NCBI GenBank assembly: GCA_013115145.1
Contig: JAAPAO010000388.1
Location: 1-33,832, forward strand
Source: Perkinsus chesapeaki
Lineage: Eukaryota > Perkinsozoa > Perkinsida > Perkinsidae
Direction of reading: 5' to 3'
DNA: 33,832 nucleotides
The notes below the pieces were generated by a model, which worked only from the letters and a program-made list of their open reading frames with translations, did not search any database and was not told where the DNA came from. Below are positions 4,651-33,832 of this stretch, in pieces (position 1 is the first letter of the stretch; each line of letters starts with the position of its first letter). Both the position numbers and the translations under genes were made by a program.

Positions 4651-4771
4651 TCCTCCTGTTCACTAAAGGAATTCTGGGATTCAGAATCGATCCTAGAATC
4701 GCATCTTACGGCCATAAAACGTTTATTCAACGACTCCATTGTATCTCAACACGAGGAACCCTTTACGGTCA

Positions 4772-9943: not shown

Positions 9944-10021
9944 GTAAATGCTGTCGGCCAACTGTAAATAGCATTCGTATCTGTGAAAGTGAAATCCCTT
10001 TCGAAACCACTTTCGGTGGAC

Positions 10022-13670: not shown

Positions 13671-13748
13671 CTCGACTGGCAAGTCCTTTGGTTCCAGTTT
13701 GCCCACAGCTCCAAAAACATCGTCGAAGCTGTCCTGTTCAACTGACAT
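13671..13748 (-). CDS. Possible first exon of an unresolved gene
   Basis: An ATG at 13748 opens 26 codons (MSVEQDSFDDVFGAVGKLEP and onward) ending exactly at a donor, GTCGAG|GTAAAA. The composition is protein-like and acidic. I could not find the next exon between 13300 and 13640, so the gene model is incomplete. Confidence 0.3.
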
Positions 13749-16059: not shown

Positions 16060-16561
16060 GGATCTTATTGGAGAAAGTCTTGATGTTTTAGAACTTGTCA
16101 GCAACAACAGCAACTCTGGCTTTAATACCATGCCATGGACGCTTTGCCGTCTTTATACGTGTTGATGGTGGCTCAACGTGTGCTGTTGTGTTGGCAGTAA
16201 GAATCATCAGCTCTTGTGAACCAGTGCTCAGGGTGATAGGCGAGTTGCGGTTCACCGCAATGGGAGACTGAGCAAAGTTTGCTCAGCAAACCCTATCCAC
16301 AAATAGTCCGTTTGTCGATCGATATCAATATGGTCGGTTTGCTGCACGTATGATGTGCGGGCGGGCTAACAGCATCAAGCATCAAGGAAAGATCCGAAAC
16401 TTGATCTCGAGCCTCGGATATAACTCAGAGCCCGAAGTCTTCGGTTTCATCAGCTTTCATAACATCTTCCTATATCTATTTCGCTAGGAAGTCTCTATTG
16501 TGACGCCTCAGTCTTTCGCTTGGCCGTAGCAGTTAGGAGACTCTTCAGTGTGTTTTTATTA
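16060..16561. other. Intergenic region between CDC14 and the FAH gene
   Basis: No exon seen. It contains a perfect 9+1+9 palindrome at 16268-16286 (CTGAGCAAA-G-TTTGCTCAG), the first of the dense set that continues to the right. Confidence 0.6.
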
Positions 16562-19500
16562 ATGAAAGCTATTTTCGAACCATCGCTCCGCCTTGTCCCA
16601 GTTGTCGGATCGGACGCAGGCTTTCCGGTGAGGAGAGTCTATTGCATCGGGCGGAATTATGTCGAGCACGCTCTGGAGGTAAGCTCTGATATGGCTATAA
16701 TTACCCCCGTCCAGGATTCGTCCTCGTTTTGCTGCCCTCCTCAGATGAATGCCGATCCTATTCGAGAACCGCCCTTTTACTTCATGAAACCAAGTGACGC
16801 TGTGACGCCGTGTGTTAGTAGACAGGAGAGTGTCACGGAGGTGCCGTATCCTAAATGTGAGCCAGTGTAGGTTTGCCGGATATAATATGCTGTTGAAGCG
16901 CGAGCGTCACTTTTTTGACAACAAAAATTGAATCTTCACGGGATTCTTTTGCCTCTTGCCAATTCGGGTTAATGTCCTTATGTGGCAGTCTGTGGAATTC
17001 TGTGCGTTGACGGCTTCAATTCGAAGCCCAGTGTCTAATACGGTATTATACGGTATTAGTAATACCATTGGCTCGACGGTTAAGCGGACATTGATTACCA
17101 ATGGATTGGCTAATAGAATTCCGTCGTTGAGCTGGAGGGTGGAGAAGCCAGTACACAAGAAATAGTTATAATCTATTTTAAATTGACAACTTCACACAAT
17201 TCGAATGACGTATGGGATTTGCTAGTTCGCCCGGGCGAACCTCACGAGAAAGCGTAAGAGCGATACGGCAATACAAAATTGCTATTATAGCTCACGTAGT
17301 AGCTGGACTCACTAAGAAAGATTGTTCGGATTTTCCGAATCACAAAGAAGTGAAATCCAGTCGTTCTCCTCCGATAGTGATGTAAAGACTTGATATAGTT
17401 GTGAATACAACGTTAGTAGAGCCACTACGTCTCAACCCAAGCTGCGGGCACCAGAATCTGACGTACCTCGCAAACCGAGCGACCCTGTCACGGGGAGCCA
17501 ATTCGTAAGTCTCGAACTCTAGAGAGTCGCTCTTAACGAGATTGAATGATGTTCGAGGCACGGTTCTACGGCCACATGAAAGGTCCAATGTAGCACTGCC
17601 TTGATGCTGGGCGGTGAATACCATATTGACATCACTAGAGTGCTTTCCTAGGTAGATGTAGCGGCCCGCTTGTGGTGGGAGTGCACGCCTTACAAAATCG
17701 AGTCTTCTACCTTCGATAGTGACATAGAGTGAATCGTCAGTCGTGAAAGTTAGAGTTGTCAAGTCACCAGCTTTAATATTCAAACGCAGGTTTGCCAGCA
17801 GGAATCTGTACCACTCGTTGAGAGCTGTAAGACCGAGGTAATACACATTCGAACGTCCCGGGCTAAGGGGGGAGGTGAGGCGCCTCGCTGATGCGGCACC
17901 ATTGTCCGGGTCCGGGATGTCGATGAGTAAATAGACCATCCTGCTTGTGTAGTCGGGAATAATGAAATCGAGAGGGTACAGTATCTCGTGCCCGGAACTA
18001 TTGGCGCCGACGACGGAACCGCTGTAAAAACCTGGTGGCTGGGCCAAGGCTTTGAGCAACATTTGGGCAGCTACGACTGACCAAGTATATGAGAATATCA
18101 TGTTTTATTATGAAACCAAAAGCAATCAACCACTTAAATAATTGCCTTTCGCGGTATTTCAGCACTTCCGCCCGGGAACCCGGCTCTTGCGGGACAACAT
18201 TGGCTGGACTACTGGGACGAAGTGTATTGGAAATTCACTCTTACTGAGCATTACCCAATTTCTGACTTTTAGTACAAGGCTTGTAGTACGATGGATGATA
18301 GCAGTGACTGCTCAGCATTCACTTGAAAGCCCACTGGGCTTAGCCCAGGCTCATCGAACTCTCTCCTATCAGACAACGTCACGGTGGCGCGCCGTTTTGT
18401 GACGATGTCGCCTCTGCCGGGAGAAGTGCAGTGTCAAGACTGAAGGGATCTTGGTAAAGGGTCTCGTAAATCGGCTAGAATTAGATGTTCAGACCATATA
18501 TGACATATCACGTACACCATCAATGACCGCTGGCCACTGACCAGTTCGAAAACTGCATACCAAATTTTCCTATTCTCGTAGTGTGACGCGAAAGTCGCGT
18601 CGGGGCTGTCCCATTGTGACATCCGATGTCACACATCGTGGTGGTGAAGCGCATCGTTACAAAGTTGGTAACCTTTCTGATCCTGCTTGGCTCAGCAACA
18701 GTTCCACATTACCGAAATGTATCATCCGCATTGCGGTCCGCAATTTGCGGATTCCTCAACTGAATTAGCCCAATATGGTTGCAAGCCAGCGTATTAGGCT
18801 ATATCAGCTGTGCCACGGATATCATATCAGTGATATCGATATGATATCACTCAATAAGGCATCTAATACATGCCTTGTATTAGATGATTCTCGTTCTGAT
18901 AGCTCTCGCGAGGTACAAATGATGTTCATCACGAGGCAGAGCTCGTTGTATGTCTCGGTCCTGGCGCCAACAGCAGAATCTGTGAGGAGCTTAGCGATAC
19001 GGAGTTGCTTGCAAAGTGCATCGTTGGTTATGCTCTCGGAATTGACCTTACCAAGAGGGATGTGCAAGCGAAGGTGAGGAATAGGAGTTCCCAGCCTGCT
19101 GTATACTGTATCACTGAGTGTTTCATGCTTCCGACGAGTCATCAATGTAACCTCAGGCAAAGTCGATGCGGCGGCCGTGGGAAGAGTCCAAGGCATTCGA
19201 CCATTCTGCTCTTATAGGCCCGATCTACCCAATGGTCGGGGCCCTACCTTGGGATAGAGCTCTTCTCTGCCTCAAGTTAGTTCAGCCACAATGAGGCCTC
19301 GTGAATATAGCGTCTCGATATTAGGACAAACGGAGAAGTGAGACAGCAGTCTACCCTCGATAAGATGATATGGCCGGTAGTTGACATCATTAAGTACATT
19401 GCAGAAAGAAACGAAATTGCACCCGGTGATATGGTGAGTCCTCCGCTCGTTTATTCCACAAATATCTTCTACGCATCGCTCATTTCAGATATACACGGGC

Positions 19501-19632
19501 ACCCCAGCAGGCGTTGGGCAATTGAAGATCGGAGATTTGTGCGAAGTCGAGCTCGTTGATAAGGATGAGGCGAACACTCCTATCATCGCTGGAATTGAAT
19601 GTTCTATGAGATTGACCCAGTCTCTTCAATGA
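16562..19632 (+). CDS. FAHD1: FAHD1-like acylpyruvase / FAH-fold hydrolase
   Basis: Six exons: 16562-16678, 16745-16856, 18913-19073, 19157-19275, 19325-19433 and 19489-19632 (stop TGA), 253 residues. Motifs follow the FAHD1 order: VYCIGRNYVEHA, PPFYFMKPSDAV, HHEAELVVCLG with the two metal-binding acids, GYALGIDLTKRDVQ with the third metal ligand Asp, TNGEVRQ and IYTGTPAGVG. Known for the family: it cleaves acylpyruvates or decarboxylates oxaloacetate with Mg2+ or Mn2+, often in mitochondria. Four introns are 49-83 nt. The second is 2,056 nt (16857-18912) and holds an antisense gene plus many palindromes. Joining exons 2 and 3 restores the normal PYPKC|TNDVHHE sequence, so the gene appears intact if this intron is spliced. 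Confidence 0.9.
17035..17066. repeat. Odd-length palindromes near the 5' part of the FAH intron
   Basis: TAATAC-G-GTATTA (17036-17048) is followed by GGTATTA-G-TAATACC (17052-17066). The same two sequences recur in the 61-nt palindrome region at 21904-21980. Confidence 0.85.
17340..18101 (-). CDS. Predicted secreted protein nested antisense in the FAH intron
   Basis: A single uninterrupted 253-residue frame from ATG 18101 to TGA at 17340. The first 20 residues (MIFSYTWSVVAAQMLLKALA) look like a signal peptide; no other membrane segment is seen. There is an internal repeat: FTTDDSLYVTIEGRRLDF at residues 119-136 and FTTISSLYITIGGERLDF at 233-250, the second lying at the C-terminus. Four Pro in the first 53 residues and few Cys are also visible. 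I do not recognise the family with certainty. Lack of introns contrasts with every other gene here and could mean retroposition or recent arrival with the surrounding intron DNA. Confidence 0.68.
   Translation of the reverse strand: MIFSYTWSVVAAQMLLKALAQPPGFYSGSVVGANSSGHEILYPLDFIIPDYTSRMVYLLIDIPDPDNGAASARRLTSPLSPGRSNVYYLGLTALNEWYRFLLANLRLNIKAGDLTTLTFTTDDSLYVTIEGRRLDFVRRALPPQAGRYIYLGKHSSDVNMVFTAQHQGSATLDLSCGRRTVPRTSFNLVKSDSLEFETYELAPRDRVARFARYVRFWCPQLGLRRSGSTNVVFTTISSLYITIGGERLDFTSL
18301..18890. repeat. Palindrome cluster at the 3' end of the FAH intron
   Basis: Perfect one-base-centre palindromes lie at 18327-18341, 18334-18348 (overlapping), 18615-18633 (TGTGACATC-C-GATGTCACA) and 18730-18744, with shorter ones at 18300-18312 and 18738-18750. 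From about 18815 to 18890 there are also repeated GATATC/ATGATATC dyads and the stem CATCTAATACA..TGTATTAGATG with a 5-nt loop. Confidence 0.85.
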
Positions 19633-20023
19633 TCTCTTTCCTTTTCATTCAGTGTGTTTGTTGTCCGATAAATGCCATTACCGATAACATAAATTAGGCT
19701 CTCCCAGCCTGGAAAAGTTCCAGTGGAACGGAGTCCCAGGAACTCCCAGGACCGAGTTGTTTCCGGATTTTTTTGTGCGACGGATTATAAAACGCTACGC
19801 TCAGCATAGCTGCTATACTACTGTATAGCAAGTCATTAACTTGTATGCTATACAACTTTTTCCATTATCCACGGCCTGCAAGGGAACCTCTTCAAGAGAC
19901 TAGTATATAGTACAAACGGTACCATCATATCGGTCCCGTTTTGGGAGTCCTGACATGTACAGGGTATCTAAAATGCCAGGGGCGTAAATTGCGCCGCGCA
20001 ATGGTAATGAATTATACACTATG

Positions 20024-20071
20024 AATAACGAGTCGTTATTAACGACACTGTCGTTACGACAGTGAGTCACT
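20024..20071. repeat. Chain of four overlapping odd palindromes
   Basis: Perfect palindromes with one central base tile this stretch: 20024-20040 (8+1+8), 20032-20046 (7+1+7), 20046-20064 (9+1+9) and 20061-20071 (5+1+5). Each overlaps the next, so the right arm of one becomes the left arm of the following one. Confidence 0.92.
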
Positions 20072-20217
20072 GGCAGCGACTATTAAATGAATATTATCCA
20101 TCAAGTGGCAAAGAAAATATAGGCTATTATAGCCTGGCTATAGTATAACCGCTATACTGTATAATCACCACTATCGAGAGTCTCAATCTAAGACTCATGT
20201 CACAGTGTGACACTGTC

Positions 20218-20270
20218 ACTTGTAAGACTCATGTGACCGTCACAGTGACAGTCACATGAGTCTTACAAGT
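20218..20270. repeat. 20-bp-arm inverted repeat
   Basis: Arms 20218-20237 (ACTTGTAAGACTCATGTGAC) and 20251-20270 are perfect reverse complements around a 13-nt centre. The centre itself contains GTCAC-A-GTGAC. Related AAGACTCATG and TCACTTGTAA words flank it on both sides. Confidence 0.92.
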
Positions 20271-20424
20271 CACTTGTAACAAGTGCTATCGTCTCTATGA
20301 CTGCTGACTATCTCTCGCATTATGAATTTTGCATTATATCAAACGAAGTTTAGCGCGTGAAAAACGGCATCCACAAGGTGATCAACAGCAGCGTTTCAGC
20401 AACTATTAGTAGCTGAAACGCTTA

Positions 20425-21110
20425 TCAGTAACGGTTATATCCACTGGATATTAGTCTAAGATCTACGCGATCTTCCCTCTCTACTGACTGAGAGCTTGCA
20501 GGCCTAGAAAACTTTTCTGATAACCTGTTGGACGAACTTCGTTCAACGAAGCAGATGTCCACAAACATGACTTTTCTCCCATTCGAGTCCATAGTCGTAA
20601 CCAGCCGATCGCACAGCCTGTAACCACAGAAGAACTCGACGATTTCATTGAAATCCAGACCCTCGGTTACCACAGGGGGCTTCTCAGTCAAGTCGTGCCC
20701 TCCACGTGGGGCCCTGGGCAACGCCTTGGTGATAACGCCTTGGCGGCTAACTAGTCTGCCCCGGGCAAACTGCCCCTCAGATCACCACCTAGTCGTTATG
20801 ACGCCAAGTAAGTCTATAGTCGTCAGAGTGGTTGCCGAAGATATACGATTCATCGTCCGCCTTGAGAATTGGGTCATGGGAGGAGATTGTCGGGATACCA
20901 ATGCCATTGGTATGATACTATCATACGATTAAAATCCGGGCTCTCCGCGACTGAGGGGTCGCCTGTCGGACCAAGTGGGGGTGAAGTTCTTCCAGTCAAA
21001 AAAAAACTCGCTGTGAACACCAGTGTCGGTACGACACCATTTTCAGACGATTTCCAAGGATGTCTGGCAAAGGCAACGCATTGAAGTACCTCGGCTATAG
21101 TTCTCGCAAA
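20425..21110 (-). CDS. Unrecognised spliced gene
   Basis: Two minus-strand stretches read as protein. The upstream one (about 21100-20950) includes AFARHPWKSSENGVVPTLVF and FFFDWKNFTPTW. The downstream one (about 20790-20425, stop TGA) includes GRLVSRQGVITKALPRAP, LDFNEIVEFFCGYRLCDRLV and GRKVMFVDICFVERSS. Between them lie two overlapping palindromes (20895-20926), consistent with an intron, but I could not fix the splice sites. No family was recognised. It converges on the FAH gene. Confidence 0.35.
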
Positions 21111-21323
21111 CGGGCCCGACTCGGGCCGCCCGGGCCTTTCCGCTCAGGGAATTCGGGTTCAGGACTTCATTCGGGACCTCAACAGCTTCGGTTTACGGAA
21201 TCAACTTACCGCCGGTAACTTACCGGAACTTCACACAGAAAGTCTGGGGTCGGGTGAGTTCATCTCTGTTGAACAACTCCCACCGGGTTGGATACCCAAG
21301 ATCTGGGTGCCAGTTGTACCCTG

Positions 21324-21506
21324 GCAAGACTCGTCCGAGTCCCGAATAGAACCTCTCAGGACCATTAGTCAACCCCAACCCAGTTAGTCCCCGGGGCATC
21401 CGGCAAGTAGTATCCCGCCTATTCGGAGCTCGCAAGACTCGTCCGAGCCCGGGTAGAACCTTTCAGGACCATTAGTCAACCCCAACCTAGTTAGTCCCCG
21501 GGGCAT
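21324..21506. repeat. Direct repeat, two 75-76-bp copies
   Basis: Copy 1 is 21324-21399 and copy 2 is 21432-21506. Both start GCAAGACTCGTCCGAG and end AGTCCCCGGGGCAT; they differ at a few positions and by one base in length. They are 108 bp apart start to start. Confidence 0.93.
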
Positions 21507-21903
21507 TTCTAGGAAAAGGCACAAGAATTTCTTGTCAAGAAACCGCCTGGGCGACCGAGATTGGTTACTTGACATTTCACGACATACCTTGAATTACTTG
21601 AGTGTTAGCTGTAACCCTTCGCTCCGCCCTTGTGTTTGCGTGCACGGTGTTCTGAGCATTAGCTATATTTCATATTCCGTCTCACAAGCTCCTGCTGACC
21701 TTGTGTTCTGCGTACGAGTAAGAATACTGCAACATTAGCCAAATCTCGAAATCTTGCATTCTCACTATTCTTTACTAGATTATACTAGGACCTAGTAACT
21801 AGGTTATAGCTGACATGGCAGAATATCTGAATCTTATCCTTGTTCTGGATACACCACTCGACAGCAGGCTGCTGATAGCAGCTGTACTGGTATCTTGCGC
21901 TCT

Positions 21904-22019
21904 ACTAATACGGTATTAGTCCAAATTTTGGACAACTGTTAGGGTATTAGTAATACCCTAACAGTTGTCCAAAATTTGGATAACTGTTGGAGTAACCAAT
22001 TCGGATTCCAAATTGGTTA
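21904..22019. repeat. 61-nt perfect palindrome with flanking palindromes
   Basis: 21920-21980 is a perfect palindrome with 30-bp arms and one central G (21950). It contains smaller palindromes, for example TCCAAA-T-TTTGGA and GGGTATTA-G-TAATACCC. It is joined on the left, sharing base 21920, to ACTAATAC-G-GTATTAGT (21904-21920), and followed by TAACCAATT..AATTGGTTA near 21993-22019. Confidence 0.95.
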
Positions 22020-22491
22020 ACACAAGTCATATGTAATTTCCAGCGCAACGAGAGCAATGAAAAACTTTCATGCAAATGCAAGAGACTTGATTCCGAATCT
22101 TGCGCTCTTGTGTTTACCTCTCCATGATTCTAAAAACACAGAAATGCCCAATGGCCGTCACCCAATCACATACAACCTTTATAAATTGGTGTAACGCTTT
22201 TAGTATTCAATTGTAATTCCCATTGCTCAGTGGCTTGAGACTGAGCACTACAGAACAATCGCATAGAGTGCCCTAGAACGCCCATCTAAATGCCATTTAA
22301 CATGTCTCATTTACTATGGCAAGCAGCTCAGCACTGTGTTAGTCTCTTCACTGGCAATTATCATTCAGTTATCGAATATAATTCCTGTCAGCTAACCTGT
22401 CTTTGAGTATACATTCGAGTCACCTTGTTATTACGCTCGAGAAAAAAGCGAAATTGCTCGGGTATGTGATGATTTTCCCTCAGTGTTTGAT

Positions 22492-23881
22492 ATGCTCTCT
22501 AATTCCCTAGCGGCTAACGGCGGCACTACATCTACTCGGCTGCCCAGGATTCCCCAGGCAATTGAGGGAAGGCCTCCGAAGCAGTCGCCTCACTTCAAGT
22601 TCGTTCTTGCGGTCATCGGCGTCATTGCCTTCATATACTGCGGTTTTGTTTTCGGTCTCTGGTGGCCGGCTCTTGGCGGCCGTTGGTCTCGGCTAATGAT
22701 GCTCATTTTCAACACCTTCGTCTGCCTTATGCTCTTGGCTTTCTTCCAGAGCTGCACTACCGATCCTGGTGGGGTCCCTCAATACTGGGGGTTCCACATA
22801 GGTGATGATGCTAAGAGGCGAAGGTACTGTAAAATGTGTCATGTTTGGAAGCCGGAAAGATGCCATCATTGCTCGGCATGTAATCGATGTAATCTTAATA
22901 TGGACCATCACTGCCCATGGCTCAACAACTGTGTTGGTTTCTACAACAGGAAGTTCTTCATCCAACTTCTTGTTTATGTCTACATTTGCATCGCTCTTGT
23001 CCTCCTATTTGGATTCCCTCGGGTAATAGCCATCCTCGACGAGCGTCTCAATCACGAGAGTGGTTTGATTCTTATGCACCCTCGTAGCTGTCTCGGTCTG
23101 TTCTCCTACGGCCTGTCGATACTACTGGCGATTTCTCTGTTTAATTTCGTTAAGTTTCATCTTGGGCTGGTTGCTGATAACTTCACGACGATTGAGAACT
23201 TCGATAGAGAGCCTGGAGTGAGGTCTAAGTATGACATTGGAAGGCGGGCTAATGTCGAGGAGGTAGTAGGGGGATATACTGGGGAAGGGTCGTTCAAAGG
23301 TACCGTACGCAATAGATGAGGATATGTTGGTATGTAGGAGGTCTTAAGCTTTTCTTTGATAGCGTTAAAAATGCAAAGTGCGGTAGTGGATGTGGTTAGA
23401 CTGTGCCGAATGGTGACTGGAAACGCAAGAGTTTTTAACGAAACCTCTCTCAATTCGTCGATCTTTGTCGCACTGTTATATGATAAAATAATTGCGGAAA
23501 GGAAATCGACTTTTTTCCACTGGCCAAATGTAGAGCCGGAGATCCATGGACGACCGGTGTGTCGTGTTAAGGAAGTCTTAGGGGAATTTCACAAGTTTCC
23601 GATCGTATTCGAATCGAGTTACTGTAGCGGAAGTGGTAGTAATGTTGCAGGTAATGGGCCCGACACCTTGGCTTTGGTGGCTGCCGTTCCACACTAGGTT
23701 GAGCGAGCCTGTTGGTGATGGCGTTAATTGGCGGATTCGGACATCTGATGGAGGAATCGGTATGAGCGCTACGAGCTCGATAAATGCAGGAAGCAAGAGT
23801 ACGACAGTAGCTCATCCGGTGACATCAGTGTCATCGGCAACCGATGCGGGGAGGGCTCCGGATTGGGCGATGCGGGAATGA
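22492..23881 (+). CDS. DHHC-type protein S-palmitoyltransferase
   Basis: Two exons, 22492-23262 and 23651-23881 (stop TGA), about 333 residues. The Cys-rich domain has CKMCHVWKPERCHHC then the catalytic DHHCPWLNNCVG, with Asp138-His139-His140-Cys141. Two membrane segments precede it (FVLAVIGVIAFIYCGFVF; LMMLIFNTFVCLMLLAFF) and two follow (LLVYVYICIALVLLF; LGLFSYGLSILLAISLF). The TTxE motif is present as TTIE. The C-terminal exon begins VMGPTPWLWWLPFHTR, which matches the usual post-TTxE region. Known for the family: it transfers palmitate from palmitoyl-CoA to protein Cys at Golgi, ER or plasma membrane. The 388-nt intron is long for this window. A Ser/Thr-rich tail ends the protein. ATG 22492 is the first in-frame Met. 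Confidence 0.92.
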
Positions 23882-24141
23882 GGAAAGAATGCAGTAACAT
23901 TACAAGCTTTTCGATCAGCGAGTTTCTTAGCGGAGCGAAGCTGAGTTGCCTAGGCGGGGTTTTGAACGAGGACAATCGGAATTCGTAAATAGTTGCATTG
24001 GACAAAGCGAGGGAGGGCTTGTTGCTCAGTAGGACGCGTCCATGGCTTGCATGGTCTTAATATAATGAATAATGATATAGTACTTTATCTCTTCTATTGA
24101 GGTATTGATGTGAATGCTATTAGCAGCTGTTTAAAACTGTA
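23882..24141. other. Intergenic region
   Basis: No exon seen. It contains one of three exact copies of GCGGAGCGAAGC (23930-23941). Confidence 0.5.
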
Positions 24142-27100
24142 ATGTCAAGCTTTCGGTCATCAACAACGGTGTTGAACAACAATGACTGTGATGTCTCGGC
24201 GGCTTCAACCAGTATAGGGGGAACACCCCCGAGAGATGCCATAGATGATCTTGAAATTGGCGCGTCCGAAGGGGAGCGGAGTCGGAATCAACAGGGCCAT
24301 AGCGGTAATAAGGGAAACGCGAAATGATTGTTACGAGCTTTGGTGTAGATGATAGGAGACGATCTAACAGGAGAACGGTAAGACGTAATTTGCTGAGGAG
24401 GATAAATGATTACACCAAATGTATATTTATGATGTTCTGTGGATTATTAGCCCTCACTTTATTAGTCTTAACAGGTAGGGGAGGGCGGGGAGAGAGGGAG
24501 ATCGGTGATCTAGTGCACGCAGTGACGCATATATCGTAGTCTATTTGATGTTCCTTAGAACTGTAACCAACTCAAACGCGCAAAGCAATAAACCAGATAC
24601 TTGTCCTTTGAGGCCTGCGTTCTAGAAACCGAGTAGAGTCGATAGCCAGAACGGAGGGGATCGATGAGACGAAACAATCACTGGGTTAGCATATATCGTA
24701 GTCTATTTGTTGAATATACCTAGGCAGATGTATGCCGTACCCACAGATGTCGGCGAAAAGTACTCAATATGGAATATGAAAATTCTATGGAATTCCGGCC
24801 AACTTTTTACGCATTTTAAAATGTATATAGTGTCGATTGGTAAAGTAGAATAATGAGGAACAGTGACGGATATGCCACCACTGTAGCCATAAAGCCGTGG
24901 GAGCTTAGAGGGTAAATATGATTCAATTCATAGTGGTCGGTTGAATATGGGCCTATTGGGTCCCAGTGAGCTATGCTCCAGAGGCGTCCCTGAGGTATTC
25001 CTACTAAGGATAAAGTATATTTTAATATCATTTAGTGCAGCTAATTATCTCATTATAACTTTACATTATTGTCATTTGAAGTCTATTACATTTCAGGTGT
25101 TACTGTATGGGCTATATTTGTTGTTGAGAAGAGCGATATGGTCTGTGACCGTCCGTTAAGAACGTAGTATGAGATGGACAGCGGAGCGAAGCGTTTTTTG
25201 TATGCAGGTTTTTGCTAGTTTATTTCGTCGGTGTCATATACGGCATATTAAAGTCCATCATCACTCGTGTCTTACTGTGCTATAATCCTAATACTAACCC
25301 CGAGAAGCCATTGAGGGTTAGAATACACGACGCTCTATTCACTGGTAATAAAGGGAGGGGGAGCTCAGTTCTGGCAGTTACGGCCCAGTGTCAGCTAAGG
25401 AATTCTCTAAAAAGAGTTGGGTGGCTCTGTCGGGTGAAGTGGCTGGGCGGCGCAATCGTTCTGGGCTATAAAAATAAAATTGGTGACAAGTACTGTACCG
25501 GAATACTACTGGTTCTGGTCATACTCCGGAGGCCAGCTGTGAGAGAATTTGGGTATTTAGAGGTACTACCTATATAATAGGTAGATGGTATTAGTAGGAA
25601 ATGCGTGGTGTTAATTGATAAAATAATGACGGGGTTATTGATCTGTCGGGCGAGAGGAGCTGCGGCCTAAGGGAAGAATATGCATTAAAGGAATGGTAGA
25701 GGTTTGATGAGCATAGTTGCTAAGAGCTACGAGGCTCCGTCGGGACATTTTATCTGCGCGCAGGGACTGACGAGGAGATCTGAATTTTGGGTTCAAAAAA
25801 TTGGCCTTGGCAGCCTTTGAGGTGTGATATGCCTTCTAATCATTTTAATAAGAAGTTAAATGAAGCTAACTAATCGGTCGTGGGCCTTTGAATACACCCT
25901 TTCATAGATGACCTTCCAGCCGACTGGATGACCATTTCTTCATTGCCTTTCAGCTTTCTGTTTTGCCTGGCCTATAATCGGTGTGGTGTGGCTTGCCTCC
26001 TCTGAAACATGCAGTACAACAGCGCCTACGCTCTTTGCAGTGTCAACGACAGTAAGGGAGGTGTCGTCGAGTGGAGGGTTGTTATTGTTGATGGTGGTGG
26101 TTTTGGTAGATTGTAGTATTGTTGATAGTGGCGTGGGTACTCACGTTATTGGGTCCACCGATAATGATAGGGATATTGATGTTGGCGATAAGAAGAGGCC
26201 ATATTAGAGTGGCAAAGGAGAGACAGGTTAAGGTTGATAGGGTAAGTGGCCCGAGGTGGGTATGTGGGTATTCATAAGGATAATACCAATAGTGGAGTAA
26301 TTTATGTATTTGAATGATATGAAACTCAACTGGATAGAATGAAGGGGTCCGAACATGTGTGATACCCATTCTGTATCCAACTCAAATAGGCTCGGGAAAA
26401 GGCTGCGAAACTTAGGGGCATTCCAGTCACGGTTTTCCCGCGCTGAACCGTGTCTCTACCTTACTAACGAAGACAAGGGCGACAGGTTTAGTGTAAACTC
26501 CGTAGATGATGGCGAATATATGATGCAAGTGTTGTTTTTTCGGGTAAGCTGTAGCGTGGCGGTATCTGTGTTGTTCAGGTCTTATCAGCATTACGTATTG
26601 TATCAGCCGATGATGCCGCGAAGGTGGCTGGCGAGTGCAGTGTTTGTTTGACGGAGTAAGAATGGGATGTTATGGTGTAACGGCAAAGCGCTGAGTTTTT
26701 CATTCATGAAGTTGTGGGTTCGAATCTATACTATAGCATTTTATTGTTTTCAGCTTTGCCGACGTTTCCAGTCGAGCCGAGGTTATCAGGGAGACTCCTT
26801 GTCAGCACTACTTCCATCATAAGTGTTTGGAGAACTGGGCAAAAGTAGGCGACGCGAGTTCGATCCCTGCTCCCTGCATTTTCTTTCCATAGAAAATCTC
26901 TTGTCTAATGTTTTATCTTGTATTACCTGATTTTATAAAGTTATTCATTGCTTCGTGTTACTTTACAGTAAAGTCTTCATTTTATAGGGTTATCCATTAT
27001 TCTTTGTTGCTTTATTTTATGAGGTTATTTATTAATTTTCATTACTTCCCAAGCAATACTATAGTAGCGATATATCCATAGTTAAATATCCTTGTGAAAA

Positions 27101-27413
27101 CGTTATTAAAAACGTTTTCCTGGCCTATGAACCTGTGTACTCAACAAGATCACTCCCCGTCAAGTTGGGTCTCCGATAAAATACAGACGTCTGCTTTCCA
27201 CGAGTTCTCGTCAACTATTGGGCAACAGGCTCTGAAACTGAGTAGTGGCGATTCGTGTGGGGGTAATCGTAGTGTGAATATGTTAGTGATGTTGATGATC
27301 AGGTTGGAAAGATGTCATGTCCGCTATGTCGAGCCGCGCTTGATCCCGAGGATCCAGAAGATGATGCTCTCTCAGTAGACGATCAGTCAGCCGCAGTGCC
27401 TTCTACCTATTAG
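24142..27413 (+). CDS. Multi-pass membrane RING-H2 protein, probable E3 ubiquitin ligase
   Basis: Clear exons: 24142-24304, 24349-24474, 25208-25344 (likely), 25954-26051, a part ending at 26543, 26579-26655, 26754-26844 and 27303-27413 (stop TAG). The N-terminus is acidic and Ser-rich, then a basic stretch and a membrane helix (CIFMMFCGLLALTLLVL). The 25208 exon adds LVYFVGVIYGILKSI. The 25954 exon has FCFAWPIIGVVWLASSETC, like membrane RING proteins of plants and protists. The RING-H2 is spread over three exons: GECSVCLT, then PCQHYFHHKCLENW, then MSCPLCRAAL, giving Cys3-His2-Cys3 zinc ligands. Known for the class: such proteins recruit E2 enzymes to ubiquitinate membrane or cytosolic substrates. 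The exons between 24475 and 26360 are incomplete, so whether 24142 and the RING belong to one gene is an inference from matching orientation and architecture. Confidence 0.7.
24527..24709. repeat. 21-bp direct repeat 162 bp apart
   Basis: GCATATATCGTAGTCTATTTG occurs exactly at 24527-24547 and 24689-24709, inside a presumed intron of the RING-H2 gene. The spacing and exact match could reflect an insertion flanked by direct repeats or an unequal duplication. Confidence 0.9.
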
Positions 27414-27704
27414 TAAACCATGTACAAAATATCGAAACATACATCATTTTTCAGACGGAGCGAACCTCTTGACGTCTTAGAACGACTTGTTCTTGAAAGG
27501 TTAAGGAATTCCCATGGCCGCCGCCGCACCACTCTTTTGTATGTATTCCCTCTGTCATAATCGACTGGATGTTTTACGCGCATCTAGTGCTTCTCTCTAA
27601 GTCGTTATTATTGTTATTATTATTACTAGCGGAGTCCTCAAAAGGAGAGTTGTGTTGTAGTCGAAGCCACTCGCAGATTCGATTGAGTTTCATATCCTTC
27701 TAAT

Positions 27705-28720
27705 ATGTCTACTGCGCGTCGACCCACTGATTTCTCTTTTGTAAGTTTCGGACGCTCTCTCTCTGATTCGCATAGGGCATCCAAATGACCTTTTCTGAAT
27801 CTTTGTTAGTGGGATCACAATCGGCTCTTGTGTGGAAGACGGTTACGATAAGTTTTCTCGAACTCTAAAAATTTATGATCCTCCAAATTCTACCAAATTT
27901 AAGATTGGTTTTTGTTTGTTTGTTACTGATAGACGGTAACGTATTAGACCCCACATGGCCATGTCACGGTGGCCCACCGTCGGCGGCCCAATTATAACGA
28001 AGCCGTGGAAATTGCCGGGTTCCGGGCAAGTTCTTGTTCTTGACTGTACGACAGATTTGGCCATGAGTTCTATGCAAAGCACGGAGAATCAGAATCCGAT
28101 TGTATGTGTCTTGAGCGTGGAGCGAAAGCTGGCATGGAAATTTCCCCTTGGCCTCGGAAGTCTTTCATTAAATTAGATATCTATCGTGGCCCAGACTCAT
28201 GGGGCATCATTTGTGCTACTACGGAGTATGACAGATTGTTAATTCACAATAGAAATAATCATTTCATTTTAGTATTGCAGAGCGTATCATTTTTCTCCTT
28301 CAGGTGATGATACCTGCATCACCATCGCAACCTATGCGAGTGTTGAGGGGACCACAAGTGAAGGCGAAGAATGATGACGAGTTCCTAGATGGAGTTAGGG
28401 AACAGTTCCATCAAAACCATAATGAAGTTGCTATTGACAAGTGATGCTTGCAAGTTAACCTAGAAAATATCTTACGGTTTCAGAAACGCGCTTATGGCTC
28501 ATTTGTCCGGTGAATCCAAGATTGACACCAACGAGCTCATGGAAACTGCTGCCAAGGTCCGCGCTTCCGACCCCGACACAGCGCGGTATTTCTTGTTCAG
28601 ACGGTCCCCAAGCTTCGTATTATTCCGCTTGCATTTGCCGCCCCGGAGAGCGAACATCGTGGGGTGCAGATGTACGCTGATGATAACGCTGGAGATGCTG
28701 GGATGAAGGAGAACGGGTAG
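27705..28720 (+). CDS. Unrecognised intron-dense gene, 11 exons, about 194 residues
   Basis: I do not recognise the family. A phase-consistent chain is 27705-27740, 27776-27808, 27853-27907, 27933-27968, 28003-28029, 28055-28101, 28177-28225, 28304-28341, 28370-28440, 28484-28556 and 28601-28720 (stop TAG). Introns are 35, 44, 25, 34, 25, 75, 78, 28, 43 and 44 nt, all GT-AG. Convincing stretches are FSRTLKIYDPPNSTKF, IISIVAQTHGASFVLLR, SDDTCITIATYAS and TVPKLRIIPLAFAAPESEHR. Weaker points: donors GTTTTT, GTTCTT and GTTGAG are poor, and reading through 28341 instead gives an alternative C-terminus ending at a TGA near 28371. The 5' ATG is a reasonable start. The product looks soluble. Confidence 0.5.
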
Positions 28721-29044
28721 GGTGATCGAAATTGTGTAAATCTCGAACTTCCTTAACGGAAATAACATGGTGCACTGGGATTATCAGAATGACTAAATGT
28801 CGGTTTGGCTTTCCCGAAGATCCTACAAGAGGTGGCCACGAGAGAAGCACTGTGAAATTATGGTACTGGACTGAGGCAGTCCAGGACATATACTAACGTC
28901 CCGAAGTTGGGTTAATTAGGGCTCCATAGTGCGCGTTGTAGAATATATGCCCCTCCGACCTCTTAGTCTCGGCTTGCTCCGGTTACAACGCTCATTTTGT
29001 GACCCTTTTAGCAGTGAGCCTCATATGTTCGAAACTTGGCCATT
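28721..29044. other. Intergenic region
   Basis: No exon or strong repeat seen between the stop at 28720 and the ATG at 29045. Confidence 0.5.
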
Positions 29045-31390
29045 ATGAATAATCTCTCTCGACCTTCAGACGAGCGGAAGGCATTGCGGCAATTTGCGGA
29101 TGCCCCCGAAGACCTATCCGAGGCGACGTCTTCATCAGCAGAGTGTTCAGTGACGGTCAGCACTGGTGGAGGTAGGCTAGTTTTGGCGGAGCGAAGCGAT
29201 CTACATGTATTCCGTTTTTATGTAGGGAGGATTTCGAGATTGCGGATATTCGCCCGAGTGCGGAATGGATTCAGACGGCGCACAAGGTGAAGACTAGGTT
29301 CGAAGAGGAGACGAAAGCCGCTATGGAGAATGCACCGGATCCGCTAGCCGATCTTCCCGAGGGTAAGATTGGGTTACCCATTCGTGCCGGCTCATTATAT
29401 TCTTTGTATACCGCTGTTTTGCTCTTCACTTTCACCTCTCCTGCATGTTGGACACGACCAATTGGTGGTCATCTCCTACCACCCTCTGGTTATTAAGTTG
29501 AAGCATCGCATAGATGTATAAAACGCTCTAGTAGCGTTGCCACTACAGCGGTCTGGCCTTAGGTTATTACAACTTGGAACAAGTTGACGAGGATGATGAA
29601 GGAGAGGCCCAGACAACAGAAGTGGGCACCGTAGCTGCACGCAAGGCACCTATGGTTAAGAAGCCAACACCGAGGCCGGAGGATATGGGCGCCTTAGATA
29701 GCAATACTTATAGAGATAACTATAAGTTCCGTCAGATGAAGGATAAGGTGAGAAGGCGAGAGATCGATCGGTAACAACTTGAAAAATACTTATAAAATTC
29801 CTATATCATTGATATAGGAATTATAATTGATATAATATCAATATTGAATTTGTTCGCAGCATGCCATAGCTGTCCATATTCATTATGAATGCCTAGTAAT
29901 ATGCCTTCGTGCGTACGGCGTGTATACGCCATGGTGTAACCTATGATATGGAGTGTCCTATTAGGACATGCTTAGTATTACTAAGTTAGTAAGCTTGTAT
30001 CACGCGCCATATAATGTCCAACTGCGGTCATGTTGATCATCCCGATGGATATATGGGTTCCGGGAGCGCGATCCTCCTTATCGTACCGCTCCGAAATAGT
30101 CGTGTCATGATGCCAGTCCATCTCGAGTGACCAACGCGCGTCTGTCGGCGCGAATGTCGAGTCAAGAATGCTCGAACATGGCTGGTAGGCTTTTGCCAGC
30201 CGTGTTTCGCCATTATTTGGCTCAGTAGCTCCATCGGAACGGCGGTCACCAACCGACGTAGGGGGCGAAGAGAAATGAGGAAAAGAAGTTCTTATCCTAG
30301 ATTTGTCCCCATTGGCGGTTGCAGGAATGTTGCTGTCGTGTAACACACGATAGAAGACCCTTGAGAAGTCTCACCATTAGTGACGAGTTGCCAGTAATGG
30401 CGAGAGCTTGTCTAGGGAAGCGGTCGTTACTAGCGACAGCTTCTGGGGCAACAAAGACTCTTAGGTTTCAACCAAGTTGTTAAGGCGGAATTGTTGGTAT
30501 AGGAGGGCCTCCTGCAAGGCTGAGCGTTGAGCGGCTGAACGGCGAGCCCTGAGCCGACTCGCGGCGCTGCACGAAACGCTGCTCTAACTGGGCAACAATC
30601 TACAATCGGTTATCGTGTACCCAAAAAGGTACTGGTGAATCCACTTTGTTGATAAAATTGGTATCTCATAACTTCATGAACAAGTTACGTCAGTTCTCAT
30701 ACGTGAGTTTCATCCGCGAGAATTTGCCACTGGCCAATTGCCAGTGTAATTTCGCTGGAAGTCCCGGTCTTCCGAGTCGGAAGTTCCGACTCTACTCATG
30801 AATCAATGCCCATTTGTGTATTGTGTAAGGGGTTCATGATGAAATCATCATGACTCAAATCTATCAGATGATGAACGGTTCATCATCTGATAGATTTGAG
30901 TTCACGTAGATGCTCAAACTTTGAGCCGACTTTAAGTCGACTTTAAGTCGACTACGTATGTGTCTCTGATTGCAGAAGTTGCTCATCCTTCCGACCACAC
31001 GTGCTGGGCTTAAAGAAATCCGCACGAACCATAATATGGGATATGGGCCCTGTATTCTTATTTACTGCTACGGTTACCTTAGATAACTGTAGCGATCGAA
31101 GTCGACGACGATATCCGCGAGGATGATGTCCGAGTTAATGTCAGACCTACCCATCTGACAGTCAGAATCACGGGCGCCGATGGTTTCGACGGTAAGTCTG
31201 ATAGCGTAGTCTCGATATTGGGGTATTGGCAGGCGAACTGAATGGCAAAGTAGATCCGCGAAAGTCTACTTGGGAAGTTGATGACGGCGAGGTTAAGATT
31301 ACTTTACAAAAGGCTGCCATCAGCGACCCTGAGGATGAGGACAGAACATGGTTCGACTGGTGGGGAGACCTCTGGGCTAAGAAAATGTAA
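29045..31390 (+). CDS. CS-domain (NudC/p23-like) protein
   Basis: Five exons: 29045-29175, 29226-29362, 29563-29747, 31083-31191 and 31233-31390 (stop TAA), 239 residues. The C-terminal half is a CS domain: NYKFRQMKDK|ITVAIEV at the start, HLTVRITGADG and FDGELNGKV in the middle, and STWEVDDGEVKITLQK then a Trp-rich WFDWWGDLW end. Known for the fold: CS domains act as HSP90 co-chaperones or in NudC-type dynein and protein-stability roles. The N-terminal half is acidic and probably disordered. The first intron is best read as GC-AG (29176-29225) and carries GCGGAGCGAAGCG. The third is 1,335 nt (29748-31082), phase 0, splits the CS domain, and is full of palindromes. The last is 41 nt. Confidence 0.85.
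29796..29992. repeat. Palindrome cluster, 5' part of the 1,335-nt intron
   Basis: Perfect one-base-centre palindromes at 29796-29822 (13+1+13), 29826-29842 (8+1+8), 29954-29968 (7+1+7), 29971-29985 (7+1+7) and 29978-29992 (7+1+7). The last two overlap. Confidence 0.92.
30774..30953. repeat. Palindrome cluster with a 49-nt perfect palindrome
   Basis: 30774-30792 (9+1+9, GAGTCGGAA-G-TTCCGACTC), 30853-30901 (24+1+24), 30912-30926 (7+1+7), 30927-30939 (6+1+6) and 30935-30953 (9+1+9). An 8+2+8 palindrome at 30837-30854 (CATGATGA-AA-TCATCATG) touches the 49-nt one. All are near the 3' end of the 1,335-nt intron. Confidence 0.93.
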
Positions 31391-32584
31391 GTTGGTTGAA
31401 TGTTTTTAGTGGAATAACGGGTTGGCTTTCGCTTTCGAATTCCAGTATCAGCTCTCACGAGTAGCCGGTCACTCATTGTAAATTATGATCTATAATCCGC
31501 CATGCTGTTAGAGTTGAATAATTGAACCCCGGCATATCTGCGTTATCCCTCAGCAATACCCTCTACTATATCACTTACACTTTTCCTGTTTTCTTCAGTA
31601 TTTCGGTCATTAGTATGTGTTGTCTGTGGCTCGTATCGAGTCCCGAAGCTGTGTCGTCTAACGTGAGTTTTTATTGGTTTGCGCTGACCGGATATTTCAT
31701 ACCTGTGTCGGAGAATTGAATTACGCGCAGAAGATTCGTTTGGGTTGGCGCGCGCCCGCGTATATGTGAAAGTATGCTATCGGATATTTGAGTGATAGTC
31801 GGAACTTTTGAGATGCACGAATTGAACGGATATCAGTATGACTGTACTCGTCGGATATTGCAGATGACCGAATCGGATAAATGCATGCTGGTTGTAAATA
31901 AAGGTGACGCAATATTTGCTTGCTACCCCTCGGAAATACCAATGCGTATATCGAAAACATGACCGGGAAAAGCTGCAGACTCCCTATAAATATCTAAGAA
32001 ATTCCATAAACTAATGTTCAGACTCGGGTTGGCTATTTTTCTTAGAGTCGCCAGCGAGATGGAATGCTTTTGAGCATCCACACTTCATCGTTTAAAACTG
32101 TCCTCGTATGATTCTCATTGTCAGGTAACTTTCAGCATTCCCTCAACATTCCTTGGTTACTGTCCAGCAATACGTCTACTAGCGCTCATACACTTAACTT
32201 CACGTCTGATTTGAGTTGTTAGATAGGCAAGAGTATAAGGGGAACATCAGTGTTATTCGCGAATTCGAAGTGAAGACAAGCTCCGATAGCACGTTCAAGT
32301 TGAACGGTTCAACCGTAGGTGATGAATAGTGTGGGCCTCACAGTGTGAGGCATTTAACGCTGCTCTGGAATAGCGGCTTATGCAACATTTGGTCAGTATG
32401 GGAGGTACGAAGCAAGGAGCATTACCGGGCAAGGAGCATTCGGGTTAGGCTGGGAGCTTCCATGATTGTTAATAGTTTGGCCGGCTTATCGAGCAATGCG
32501 TAGCTGGCTACAAGCTAATGTCTACTGAGTTCAACTTTAACGTGATTTTATCGTTCTTTTGCGCTCATCTCTCCGCAAGCTTAC
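31391..32584. other. Weakly coding region with palindromes
   Basis: A possible last exon at 32223-32329 (contains YKGNISVIREFEVKTSSDS, stop TAG) follows a TTGTTAG acceptor, but it has no clear partner and its end overlaps two palindromes (32292-32306, 32304-32316). Another palindrome, GCCTCACA-G-TGTGAGGC, lies at 32335-32351. A GTGAGT donor after a short open stretch near 31665 may mark another exon. I could not build a gene. Confidence 0.3.
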
Positions 32585-33832
32585 ATGAGTTCTGATATTC
32601 ATCGTCCTGGAGCTAGCGAACTGCGGAGTCGTGATGTTATGCAGGGAGGTGCCGGTGATGACTCTCCAATCACGGTAAAACTTCGAAAACCTGGATTATC
32701 ACCATATGCAGTCACGTCAACGCTAATGAGGTTATTTCACTCTTGTGAGGTTTATCGCCCTAAATGTATGTCATGGTCCACGAGGTTGGTTCAGATCTGC
32801 CGAAAATCATTTGCGTGCGAGAGTTCAGATATTTCGCGTCATCAAATCAGATGAATAGCTGCGTTCCGGTTGCATTTTCAACTTTCTCTCTGCGTTCGGA
32901 ATTCAGTTTGTGATGTGAGAATACGCAGGTACTTCTGGGTTACCAGTACGCCAGTGGCCATAGGCTACTTCTACAGCTTTATAAGCTTCGATAAAAATAA
33001 TCCCACTACCCGGGGAATGAAATTGGTTGGTCTTCAGGTAGCCTCGAGCTTCAGAAGCTCCTTATCTGCTCGGGGAGCCTCAAACCGAACGATTCTGACC
33101 TCGAACGAACTAGACGACCTATGTGTACAAACCGTACTAGAACGATATCCCCATCACAATGTCACCGGAGGTATCGAACCGTTCGAGGAGAAATATCAAT
33201 GGGACACACAAGATGTTTGGCCAACCTTAAGCGCTTTCGGAGCGTGCATGCGGCCAGCTTCATCGTCTGCCTGCTCTGAGAATGAAAGCCATTCGTCTAT
33301 AAGGCTTCACAGCTCGCCTCCGAGTGTTTCCGGGACGCGAACATTAGCTGACATAGAGACGATACTGAACCAGCTAGATCGCCCCGTAGAGCCGCGCAGA
33401 ATGCGCGATAGTGTTGAGCCGCCACCAAAAGACAGCGCTGTGGGAATGAGTCTCGAGGGAGTACGCTTCTTGGAGGCACTGTCCGCGAAGAGGATACAGA
33501 GGAGCTGGCGGGCCTATATGAAACGACAAGAGATAGTAAGCAGGGGAGTGACTATTTCCACCCATTCCCGAGGCGAACCTCGGAGGTTCAACCTCCCTTT
33601 ACGGCACTGTAGTAGCAGTTGCTATCACACATGTTCTAGAATCATTTTAGTAGAATACGGCAGGCTTCACTTTCTTACCATGGTCAGACGAAAATGTACG
33701 AGAGGACAGCGGAGCGATGCAGGCAAATGGTAGAGGCAACATTGCTCCAGACGGCCATGCAGAATAGCAGGCAAATCGAGAAGGAACTTCTTGCATTGAA
33801 AGTGGGCCATAACCTTGCTCCTAAAGAGTCTG
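32585..33832 (+). CDS. IQ-motif protein, 3' end beyond the window
   Basis: The large exon 33038-33535 follows a GTCTTCAG acceptor and ends at a GTAAGC donor. It encodes 166 residues with a Ser-rich acidic region and, near the end, an IQ motif (AKRIQRSWRAYMKRQ) that would bind calmodulin or a related light chain. After a 152-nt intron (33536-33687) the next exon starts at 33688 and stays open to the window edge with coiled-coil-like sequence (MYERTAERCRQMVEATLLQ). A likely first exon begins at ATG 32585 and ends at 32674 before GTAAAA, but exons between 32675 and 33037 are unresolved. The product may be a centrin- or cytoskeleton-associated protein; that is an inference from the IQ motif alone. 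Confidence 0.6.
33568..33596. repeat. Adjacent hairpins in an IQ-gene intron
   Basis: CCGAGG-CGAA-CCTCGG (33568-33583) overlaps GGAGGTT-C-AACCTCC (33582-33596). Both are inside the 152-nt intron 33536-33687. Confidence 0.9.

What the first reader, a model, noticed from the sequence alone, without database searches (positions are those of the whole stretch)
16268..33596. Large excess of perfect palindromes with exactly one central base
By eye I find 28 perfect inverted repeats with arms of at least 7 bp separated by a single base: 2066, 16268, 17052, 18327, 18334, 18615, 18730, 20024, 20032, 20046, 20121, 20895, 20910, 21212, 21904, 21920, 29796, 29826, 29954, 29971, 29978, 30774, 30853, 30912, 30935, 32292, 32335 and 33582 (start positions). 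Chance would give about 2 in 33.8 kb (33,832 divided by 4 to the 7th). Arms reach 30, 24 and 13 bp. Nearly all lie in introns or intergenic DNA, and only one lies in the first 16 kb. The central base varies (A, C, G or T), so this is not one repeated sequence but a repeated form. Palindromes with no central base do not seem enriched to the same degree. A mechanism that copies a strand back on itself around one base, or a transposon/introner family defined by such ends, could explain this.
Basis: partly seen in the sequence, partly recalled or inferred. Interest (0 to 1): 0.9.

Follow-up and report, generated by a model that had tools for sequence, protein, structure and literature searches.

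The report
Thousands of hAT transposon excision scars
The odd little mirror-image sequences are scars left where 'hAT' jumping genes were cut out of the genome of the clam parasite Perkinsus chesapeaki; they appear to number in the thousands, mostly share one stereotyped 22-base form, and so record past jumping-gene activity although the jumping genes themselves now seem rare.

Summary
The genome is Perkinsus chesapeaki. Arms jump at exactly 7 and centres pair exactly 7 bp apart, giving a 22-bp unit N0-X6-M1'-X6'-N0'-X6-M1. This is what hAT excision predicts: an 8-bp target duplication, flank hairpins tipped by the complement of the base next to the element, opened >=8 nt away, overhangs annealed. 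The 8-mers follow nTnnnnAn; six perfect footprints at five paralogous sites give a 14-bp difference or the same empty site; 8 of 241 other palindrome pairs share the 8-mer, 7 exactly. hAT transposase fragments exist, but no responsible element was identified, and 43 of 232 palindromes lack a partner end. About 5,000 perfect footprints, 15,000 with <=2 changes, are extrapolated. The chemistry is known from Ac/Ds; I found no report of a uniform product accumulated at genome scale.

The parts
300..321 (.). 22-bp double footprint with 1 change
523..544 (.). Perfect 22-bp double footprint, target 8-mer CTATAGCC
2059..2080 (.). Perfect 22-bp double footprint, target 8-mer TACCTTGT; the paralogue L006 lacks exactly 14 bp here and has a single 8-mer matching at 7 of 8 bases
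16270..16291 (.). Perfect 22-bp double footprint, target 8-mer GAGCAAAC
17035..17066 (.). Palindrome centres 17042 (arm 6) and 17059 (arm 7) share target CTAATACC: read as a two-hairpin, end-joined footprint; 17045-17066 alone also reads as a double with 2 changes
18327..18348 (.). Perfect 22-bp double footprint, target 8-mer AAGCCCAG
18617..18638 (.). 22-bp double footprint with 1 change
18730..18751 (.). Perfect 22-bp double footprint, target 8-mer ATTGCGGA; lies inside an older footprint (1 change) that appears when it is collapsed
19981..20002 (.). 22-bp double footprint with 1 change
20025..20046 (.). Perfect 22-bp double footprint, target 8-mer ATAACGAC
20041..20062 (.). Perfect 22-bp double footprint, target 8-mer AACGACAG (overlaps the previous one: a repeatedly hit site)
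20121..20142 (.). Perfect 22-bp double footprint, target 8-mer AGGCTATA
20136..20157 (.). 22-bp double footprint with 1 change
20264..20285 (.). Perfect 22-bp double footprint, target 8-mer TACAAGTG
20530..20551 (.). 22-bp double footprint with 1 change
21113..21134 (.). 22-bp double footprint with 1 change
21205..21226 (.). 22-bp double footprint with 1 change
21521..21542 (.). Perfect 22-bp double footprint, target 8-mer ACAAGAAA
21783..21804 (.). Perfect 22-bp double footprint, target 8-mer TACTAGGT
21904..21980 (.). Two-hairpin, end-joined footprint: palindromes centred at 21912 (arm 8) and 21950 (arm 30) share target CTAATACC; explains the 61-bp palindrome
29796..29842 (.). Two-hairpin, end-joined footprint: palindromes centred at 29809 (arm 13) and 29834 (arm 8) share target TATATCAA; 3 bases between them unexplained
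29971..29992 (.). Perfect 22-bp double footprint, target 8-mer CTTAGTAA
30723..30744 (.). 22-bp double footprint with 1 change
30769..30790 (.). Perfect 22-bp double footprint, target 8-mer CTTCCGAC
30853..30901 (.). Long one-base-spacer palindrome (arm 24) with no partner end found; not explained individually
32292..32313 (.). Perfect 22-bp double footprint, target 8-mer CGTTCAAC
33575..33596 (.). Perfect 22-bp double footprint, target 8-mer GAACCTCC (inside a 292-codon stop-to-stop frame of unknown status)
22492..23878 (+). Palmitoyltransferase gene, exons 22492-23271 and 23648-23878; none of the window's 40 doubles with <=2 changes lies in it. (The 17 doubles with exactly 2 changes are listed and not repeated here.)

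Best explanation
The palindromes are excision footprints of hAT-superfamily transposons. SHOWN by sequence: the common unit is (first 7 bases of an 8-mer) + (reverse complement of the 8-mer) + (last 7 bases of the 8-mer), 14 bp longer than the empty site. INFERRED mechanism: (1) a hAT element inserts and duplicates 8 bp, N0 X M1. (2) On excision the transposase nicks one base outside each end (recalled), and the freed 3' end attacks the other strand at the element boundary. Each flank becomes a hairpin whose tip is the complement of the base next to the element; that tip is the 'one central base'. (3) A host nuclease opens the hairpins eight or more bases from the tip. (4) The two 3' overhangs carry complementary copies of the 8-mer and anneal, and flaps are trimmed and sealed, giving the 22-bp double palindrome. 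In a minority the opened hairpins are joined end to end, giving two separate palindromes with longer arms (up to 30 bp in the window) that still share the 8-mer. Footprints seem to have built up over a long time up to the recent past.
For: Arm lengths 5-9 at spacer 1: 236, 83, 112, 29, 17, a jump at exactly 7; spacer 2: 112, 35, 11, 3, 1. Centres exactly 7 apart: 42 perfect pairs, none at 6 or 8. Target length 8 gives 42 fully explained products with the expected middle; lengths 6, 7, 9 and 10 give 0 of that product (2, 1, 3 and 0 other explained ones), and three shuffles give none with 2 or more bases between the two ends. Replication outside the window: 27 perfect doubles in 182,404 bases of 20 loci and 17 in 35,723 bases of twelve loci not used to derive the model; at the >=13/14 level spacing 7 has 43 and 27 there, other spacings average 0.9 and 0.7. 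Target 8-mers (n=59): T at position 2 in 28 (p=4e-4), A at position 7 in 34 (p=7e-7), both in 15 against 4.2 expected; nTnnnnAn is the Hermes target (PMC10368747, passages; PMC2803484, passages). Paralogues: six perfect doubles lie at five alignable sites; at four sites the other copy lacks exactly 14 bp, at the fifth both copies carry different overlapping footprints that reduce to the same empty site. Palindrome pairs (arms >=6) up to 150 bp apart at spacings other than 7: 8 of 241 share the 8-mer, 7 exactly and 1 with one mismatch; my arithmetic expects fewer than 0.1. Two perfect footprints are nested in older ones with 1 change. ORFs >=200 codons: 4 palindromes in 32.7 kb against 170 in 183.5 kb outside. 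hAT dimerisation domains in the genome: 4, all four re-found by Pfam. [quoted passage not shown] hAT hairpins form on the flank (PMC6900584, passages).
Against: No element family that made these footprints was identified. The TSD8+TIR12 scan found 0 at >=11/12 and 1 at 10/12 (L009); hAT transposase hits are few; DUF659, zf-BED and hAT RNase-H profiles found nothing, but those searches rang in no control genome either and do not show absence. Of 232 palindromes in three sets, 166 lie in doubles with <=2 changes, 11 in doubles with 3 changes (where background is not small), 12 have a partner end within 150 bp, and 43 have none. Of 22 palindromes with arms >=10, 8 have no second target copy within about 60 bp beyond the palindrome, including the one at 30853. 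The short palindrome at window 2179 is present, with a shorter arm, in the paralogue too, so it tests nothing. At L016:9747 the empty 8-mer in the other copy matches at only 5 of 8 bases. One perfect double lies in a 292-codon frame. Short plant-like footprints are not clearly above chance, so nearly all recognised products are of one type, unlike the varied Ac/Ds footprints; partly this reflects what can be recognised.
Confidence: 0.93

Rival explanations
1. Strand copying around one base: polymerase template switching or fold-back synthesis makes palindromes directly.
For: Would make perfect palindromes of varying sequence; 43 of 232 palindromes have no partner end.
Against: Predicts no fixed arm of 7, no 7-bp centre spacing, no shared 8-mer between separated palindromes, no constant +14 bp and no nTnnnnAn bias; all are seen. 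A one-base fold-back loop would also be strained (general knowledge).
Confidence: 0.03
2. A family of tiny mobile elements or introners defined by palindromic ends inserts these sequences.
For: Dispersed, depleted in long frames, and an insertion relative to paralogues.
Against: The inserted 14 bp are predicted by the target 8-mer at each site, so no element sequence is left over; the 59 target 8-mers of the perfect doubles differ.
Confidence: 0.02
3. Same excision chemistry, but by a domesticated hAT-like transposase in a programmed or quantitative removal of elements (comparable to Kat1 in Kluyveromyces, PMC4763223 passages, or to internal eliminated sequences in ciliates, recalled), which would explain why footprints outnumber elements.
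For: About 5,000 perfect and 15,000 near-perfect footprints extrapolated, against 4 hAT dimerisation-domain hits; one product type dominates.
Against: The substitution spectrum suggests gradual accumulation; low-copy active elements could leave many footprints over time; the genome searches are lower bounds by the tool's own statement; nuclear dimorphism in Perkinsus is not known to me (recalled).
Confidence: 0.1
4. Sequencing or assembly artefact.
For: The assembly is fragmented (884 contigs).
Against: Nothing I know of in assembly would choose nTnnnnAn targets, avoid long ORFs, show graded decay by substitutions or differ by exactly 14 bp between paralogues.
Confidence: 0.01

Closest known systems
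Ac/Ds (hAT) excision footprints with palindromic P-nucleotides (PMC5873905, passages seen; S. cerevisiae and Arabidopsis results as cited there)
   Same: Palindromes centred on the complement of the base bordering the element; hairpin opening; microhomology-guided joining; yeast arms reported up to 20 nt.
   Different: Those footprints are varied (28 kinds among 128 in Candida), recovered from induced excisions. Here one 22-bp product with full 8-nt overhang annealing dominates what can be recognised and has accumulated across a natural genome.
Hermes / hAT transposase chemistry (PMC10368747, PMC2803484, PMC6900584, passages seen)
   Same: 8-bp duplication with nTnnnnAn; hairpins on flanking DNA.
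   Different: The Perkinsus transposase responsible is not identified; the one-base offset of the nick is recalled, not seen in a paper here (the Hermes structure paper was not held).
V(D)J recombination P-nucleotides (RAG/Transib; recalled, with PMC6900584 passages for flank hairpins)
   Same: Flank hairpins opened off-centre leave palindromes.
   Different: RAG cuts exactly at the border (PMC6900584 passages), which should give palindromes without a central base, and Transib duplicates 5 bp (recalled); here a central base is present and the duplication is 8 bp.
DNA-transposon excisions compared between two rice species (PMC4423477, abstract and passages seen)
   Same: Genome-scale catalogue of excision footprints.
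   Different: 94 putative excisions found by species comparison, nearly all with deletions and/or filler; here the footprint can be recognised in a single genome without comparison.

Membership tests
hAT excision footprint | 8-bp target site duplication | tested here: met
   Only target length 8 gives the expected middle (42 against 0 for lengths 6, 7, 9, 10); empty paralogues have one 8-mer
hAT excision footprint | Palindrome centred on the complement of the base bordering the element (one central base) | tested here: met
   Excess at spacer 1 only; centre bases complement the outer bases in the double unit
hAT excision footprint | Target preference nTnnnnAn | tested here: met
   28/59 T2, 34/59 A7, 15/59 both against 4.2 expected
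hAT excision footprint | Insertion relative to the empty site explained by the target alone | tested here: met
   Six perfect doubles at five paralogous sites: 14 bp missing in the other copy at four, same reduced empty site at the fifth
hAT excision footprint | hAT transposase in the genome | tested here: met
   4 hAT dimerisation domains over cut-off; 2 DUF4371 hits, one at the same C379 locus as a dimerisation domain; none shown to be active
hAT excision footprint | Resident element with TIRs and 8-bp duplication, able to make the footprints | tested here: inconclusive
   Candidate C779:8146-11774, duplication TATGCTAC, ends CTGAGCANTG around a hAT domain; its end is single-copy, and the number of duplication+TIR candidates at length 8 (9) is not above length 7 (17), so chance is possible
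hAT excision footprint | Occupied and footprint alleles at the same site | not testable with these tools
   The genome tool states that G000 has no relatives held
RAG/Transib footprint | Palindromes without a central base (recalled) | tested here: not met
   Spacer 0: 20 observed, 12.7 in shuffles, against 174 at spacer 1
RAG/Transib footprint | 5-bp target duplication (recalled) | tested here: not met
   The duplicated unit is 8 bp in paralogues; target length 5 itself was not run (6, 7, 8, 9, 10 were)

The most novel reading that the evidence does not exclude
Perkinsus removes hAT-type elements almost completely, by a dedicated or unusually uniform excision-and-repair pathway that opens flank hairpins beyond the 8-mer and anneals the overhangs, so that footprints outnumber resident elements by perhaps a thousand to one. 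The genome then carries a self-dating record, since each scar holds three copies of the same 6-mer, of an otherwise vanished transposon population.
Probability: 0.12. Interest if true: 0.85.

Novelty: new variant of a known kind. Interest (0 to 1): 0.66.

Why it matters
Excision footprints are usually seen in genetic experiments or inferred by comparing genomes. Here they can be recognised in a single genome from internal symmetry alone and are common enough for statistics. They give an estimate of past excisions, target preference, repair outcome and relative age (from substitutions among three copies of X) even when the elements are not found. The same scan (odd palindrome pairs with centres at target length minus one) could be run on any genome to look for hidden hAT activity. 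In Perkinsus it also points to a host repair habit, hairpin opening far from the tip followed by annealing, that appears more uniform than what PMC5873905 reports for Candida, yeast and Arabidopsis.

Tried and rejected
Template switching / fold-back replication: rejected because of the fixed 7-bp centre spacing, fixed arm, shared 8-mers and constant +14 bp.

Mobile palindromic element or introner: rejected, since each insertion is predicted by its own target.

Short plant-like footprints (0, 1, 2 bases between the two ends): 7, 4 and 1 fully explained against 5.7, 1.3 and 0 per shuffle (17, 4 and 0 over three shuffles); not clearly above chance.

A 'reversed sequence' control is uninformative, because the structure survives reversal; I do not use it.

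Looking for the element: TSD8+TIR12 scan, 0 at >=11/12, 1 at 10/12; shorter ends gave the C779 candidate, single-copy. A repeat matched by 29 of the 32 hits has inverted ends CTACAGCATTTCCC but no clear 8-bp duplication in the two copies whose ends I compared (L039, L041); not counted as hAT.

Not testable: the footprints at L016:1562-1569 lie in a part of the paralogous repeat that does not align, so they were left out of the paralogue count.

Possible bias: the 20 loci are contig starts, and L005 and L011 are mostly N. The extrapolation uses those 20 loci only, not the window; its bootstrap interval is wide (2,600-8,500 perfect; 8,300-23,300 with <=2 changes). The twelve later loci surround hAT hits and are denser, so they are not a random sample. 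The classes with 4-5 changes are dominated by background and are not used. The ORF test depends on the cut: palindromes inside/outside are 39/135 at >=100 codons, 8/166 at >=150, 4/170 at >=200; near-perfect doubles 15/49, 4/60, 1/63.

Protein search 9 was used to name the organism; protein search 69 to see relatives of one hAT-like protein. Literature: ten searches, all used. Of these, some bear on whether such a footprint catalogue is in print; I saw none in their listings, but several listings were cut to the best rows and the library lacks most subscription papers.
Full report
WHAT WAS CLAIMED. All 28 are there. The full count in the window is 59, with 8 in the first 16 kb. Spacer 0 has 1, spacer 2 has 2, spacer 3 has 6 maximal repeats. 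In the window plus 20 ten-kilobase stretches from other contigs, spacer 1 has 174 while spacers 0 and 2-20 have 11-26; three dinucleotide shuffles average 11.7 at spacer 1. The excess is therefore real, not limited to this window, and confined to spacer 1.

WHERE IT IS. The window is contig C321 (33,832 bases) of a 35.4-Mb, 884-contig assembly. A palmitoyltransferase encoded in it is 100% identical to a Perkinsus chesapeaki protein recorded on a contig of the same length. Its exons (22492-23271 and 23648-23878) hold none of the window's 40 doubles with up to two changes (list).

THE SHAPE. The arm-length histogram at spacer 1 does not fall smoothly: lengths 5, 6, 7, 8, 9 number 236, 83, 112, 29, 17, whereas spacer 2 gives 112, 35, 11, 3, 1. 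The natural arm is thus 7, with most longer arms by chance extension. Successive centres lie exactly 7 bases apart 42 times and never 6 or 8. With up to one mismatched pair in 14, spacing 7 has 64 cases and every other spacing from 2 to 21 has at most 5. Two 15-bp palindromes with centres 7 apart form a 22-bp unit: N0 X M1' X' N0' X M1, with X of 6 bases and primes for complements. Read differently, it is the first seven bases of an 8-mer, the reverse complement of the 8-mer, and its last seven bases.

WHAT MAKES SUCH A SHAPE. hAT transposons duplicate 8 bp on insertion and leave hairpins on the flanking DNA on excision (PMC10368747, PMC6900584, passages). [quoted passage not shown] If both hairpins are opened at least 8 bases from their tips, the overhangs carry complementary copies of the 8-mer; annealing them yields exactly the 22-bp unit, 14 bp longer than the empty site. 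The one-base offset of the first nick, which gives the single central base, is recalled from the Hermes literature; that paper was not held.

TESTS OF THE MODEL. (a) Target length: only 8 gives the product (42 fully explained; lengths 6, 7, 9 and 10 give none of it, with 2, 1, 3 and 0 other explained arrangements; shuffled sequence none with two or more bases between the ends). (b) Target preference: of 59 perfect doubles, T at position 2 in 28, A at position 7 in 34, both in 15 against 4.2 expected, which is nTnnnnAn. (c) Empty sites: self-comparison of the sampled DNA gave paralogous repeats. Six perfect doubles fall in their alignable parts, at five sites. At L016:1320, L016:9747, L006:4191 and window 2066 the other copy lacks exactly 14 bp; its single 8-mer matches at 8, 5, 7 and 7 of 8 bases. 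At L016:1252 and 9375 the two copies carry different, overlapping footprints that reduce to the same empty site. (d) End-joined products: among 241 palindrome pairs (arms >=6) up to 150 bp apart at spacings other than 7, 8 share the 8-mer, 7 of them exactly, where my arithmetic expects fewer than 0.1. They include the 61-bp palindrome at 21920 with its partner at 21912, and 29809 with 29834. (e) Nesting: collapsing 59 perfect footprints to their empty sites uncovers two older footprints, each with one change. (f) Selection: ORFs of at least 200 codons hold 4 of 174 palindromes and 1 of 64 near-perfect doubles although they make up 32.7 of 216 kb; the depletion is weaker at lower cuts, where chance frames enter (39 of 174 at 100 codons). 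A 14-bp insertion shifts the frame. (g) Replication: the 20 loci (27 perfect doubles in 182,404 bases) and twelve loci fetched later for the hAT search (17 in 35,723 bases) repeat the pattern.

HOW MANY AND HOW OLD. In the 20 loci, doubles with 0, 1 or 2 changes number 27, 23 and 29. Scaled to 35.4 Mb this is about 5,200 perfect (bootstrap 2,600-8,500) and about 15,300 with up to two changes (8,300-23,300). Over all 251,959 bases the classes 0-3 hold 59, 43, 59 and 103 against a Markov background of 0, 0, 1.6 and 28.9. That is roughly level, as expected for long, steady deposition continuing to recent times; this is inference.

WHAT IS NOT EXPLAINED. The maker is missing. Profile searches of the whole genome found four hAT dimerisation domains and two DUF4371 matches, one with internal stops and one at the same C379 locus as a dimerisation domain; three other hAT-linked profiles found nothing, but rang in no control genome either, and these searches are lower bounds. 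One candidate element, C779:8146-11774, has an 8-bp duplication and matching ends around a hAT domain, but its end is single-copy and chance is possible. Of 232 palindromes, 166 lie in doubles with up to 2 changes, 11 in doubles with 3, 12 have a partner end nearby and 43 have none within 150 bp; 8 of 22 with arms >=10 have no second target copy close by. Decay, deletion or a lost second end may account for them, but this was not shown. Why one product dominates over the varied footprints known from plants and yeast is also open; annealing of long overhangs is the simplest reading, and other products would be harder to recognise.

VERDICT. Excision footprints of hAT transposons, in an unusually uniform form and number. 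The chemistry is known. The points I take as new are the dominant 22-bp annealed product, its genome-scale accumulation, and that it can be read and relatively dated from one genome. I saw no such catalogue in the listings of my literature searches, which cover only open-licence papers.

Noticed in passing
L016:9461-9618, window 31830-31978 (-) and other places in G000 (29 of the 32 matches, inverted ends counted apart): A repeat of about 157 bp whose ends (CTACAGCATTTCCC...) occur as inverted pairs about 210-600 bp apart in L039, L041 and L042; looks like a MITE, without a clear 8-bp target duplication in the two copies compared (L039, L041).
   Followed up: partly
window 21920-21980, L004:8188-8248, L006:4641-4701: Three long one-base-spacer palindromes all measure 61 bp by ungapped extension (98%, 95% and 89% identical to their own reverse complement, the window one differing only at its centre); the window one is explained by its partner at 21912, the other two were not resolved.
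   Followed up: partly
window 10470-10634 and 13044-13310: Tandem arrays with 38-bp and 36-bp units.
   Followed up: no
window 5982-8518 (-): Two adjacent long frames; the first matches FUSC/ALMT-like transporters, the second no Pfam family.
   Followed up: no
window 17340-18104 (-): 254-aa frame with an internally repeated motif and no Pfam match.
   Followed up: no
window 17035-17066 and 21904-21980: Two separate end-joined footprints in the window use the same target 8-mer CTAATACC with different flanks.
   Followed up: no
window 2157-2225: Imperfect inverted structure around GACACAAGTTGTGTC; its palindrome at 2179 is also in the paralogue L006, next to a 40-bp stretch that L006 lacks.
   Followed up: no
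L016:772-1176: About 405 bp present in one copy of the paralogous repeat and absent from the other, with no obvious target duplication.
   Followed up: no
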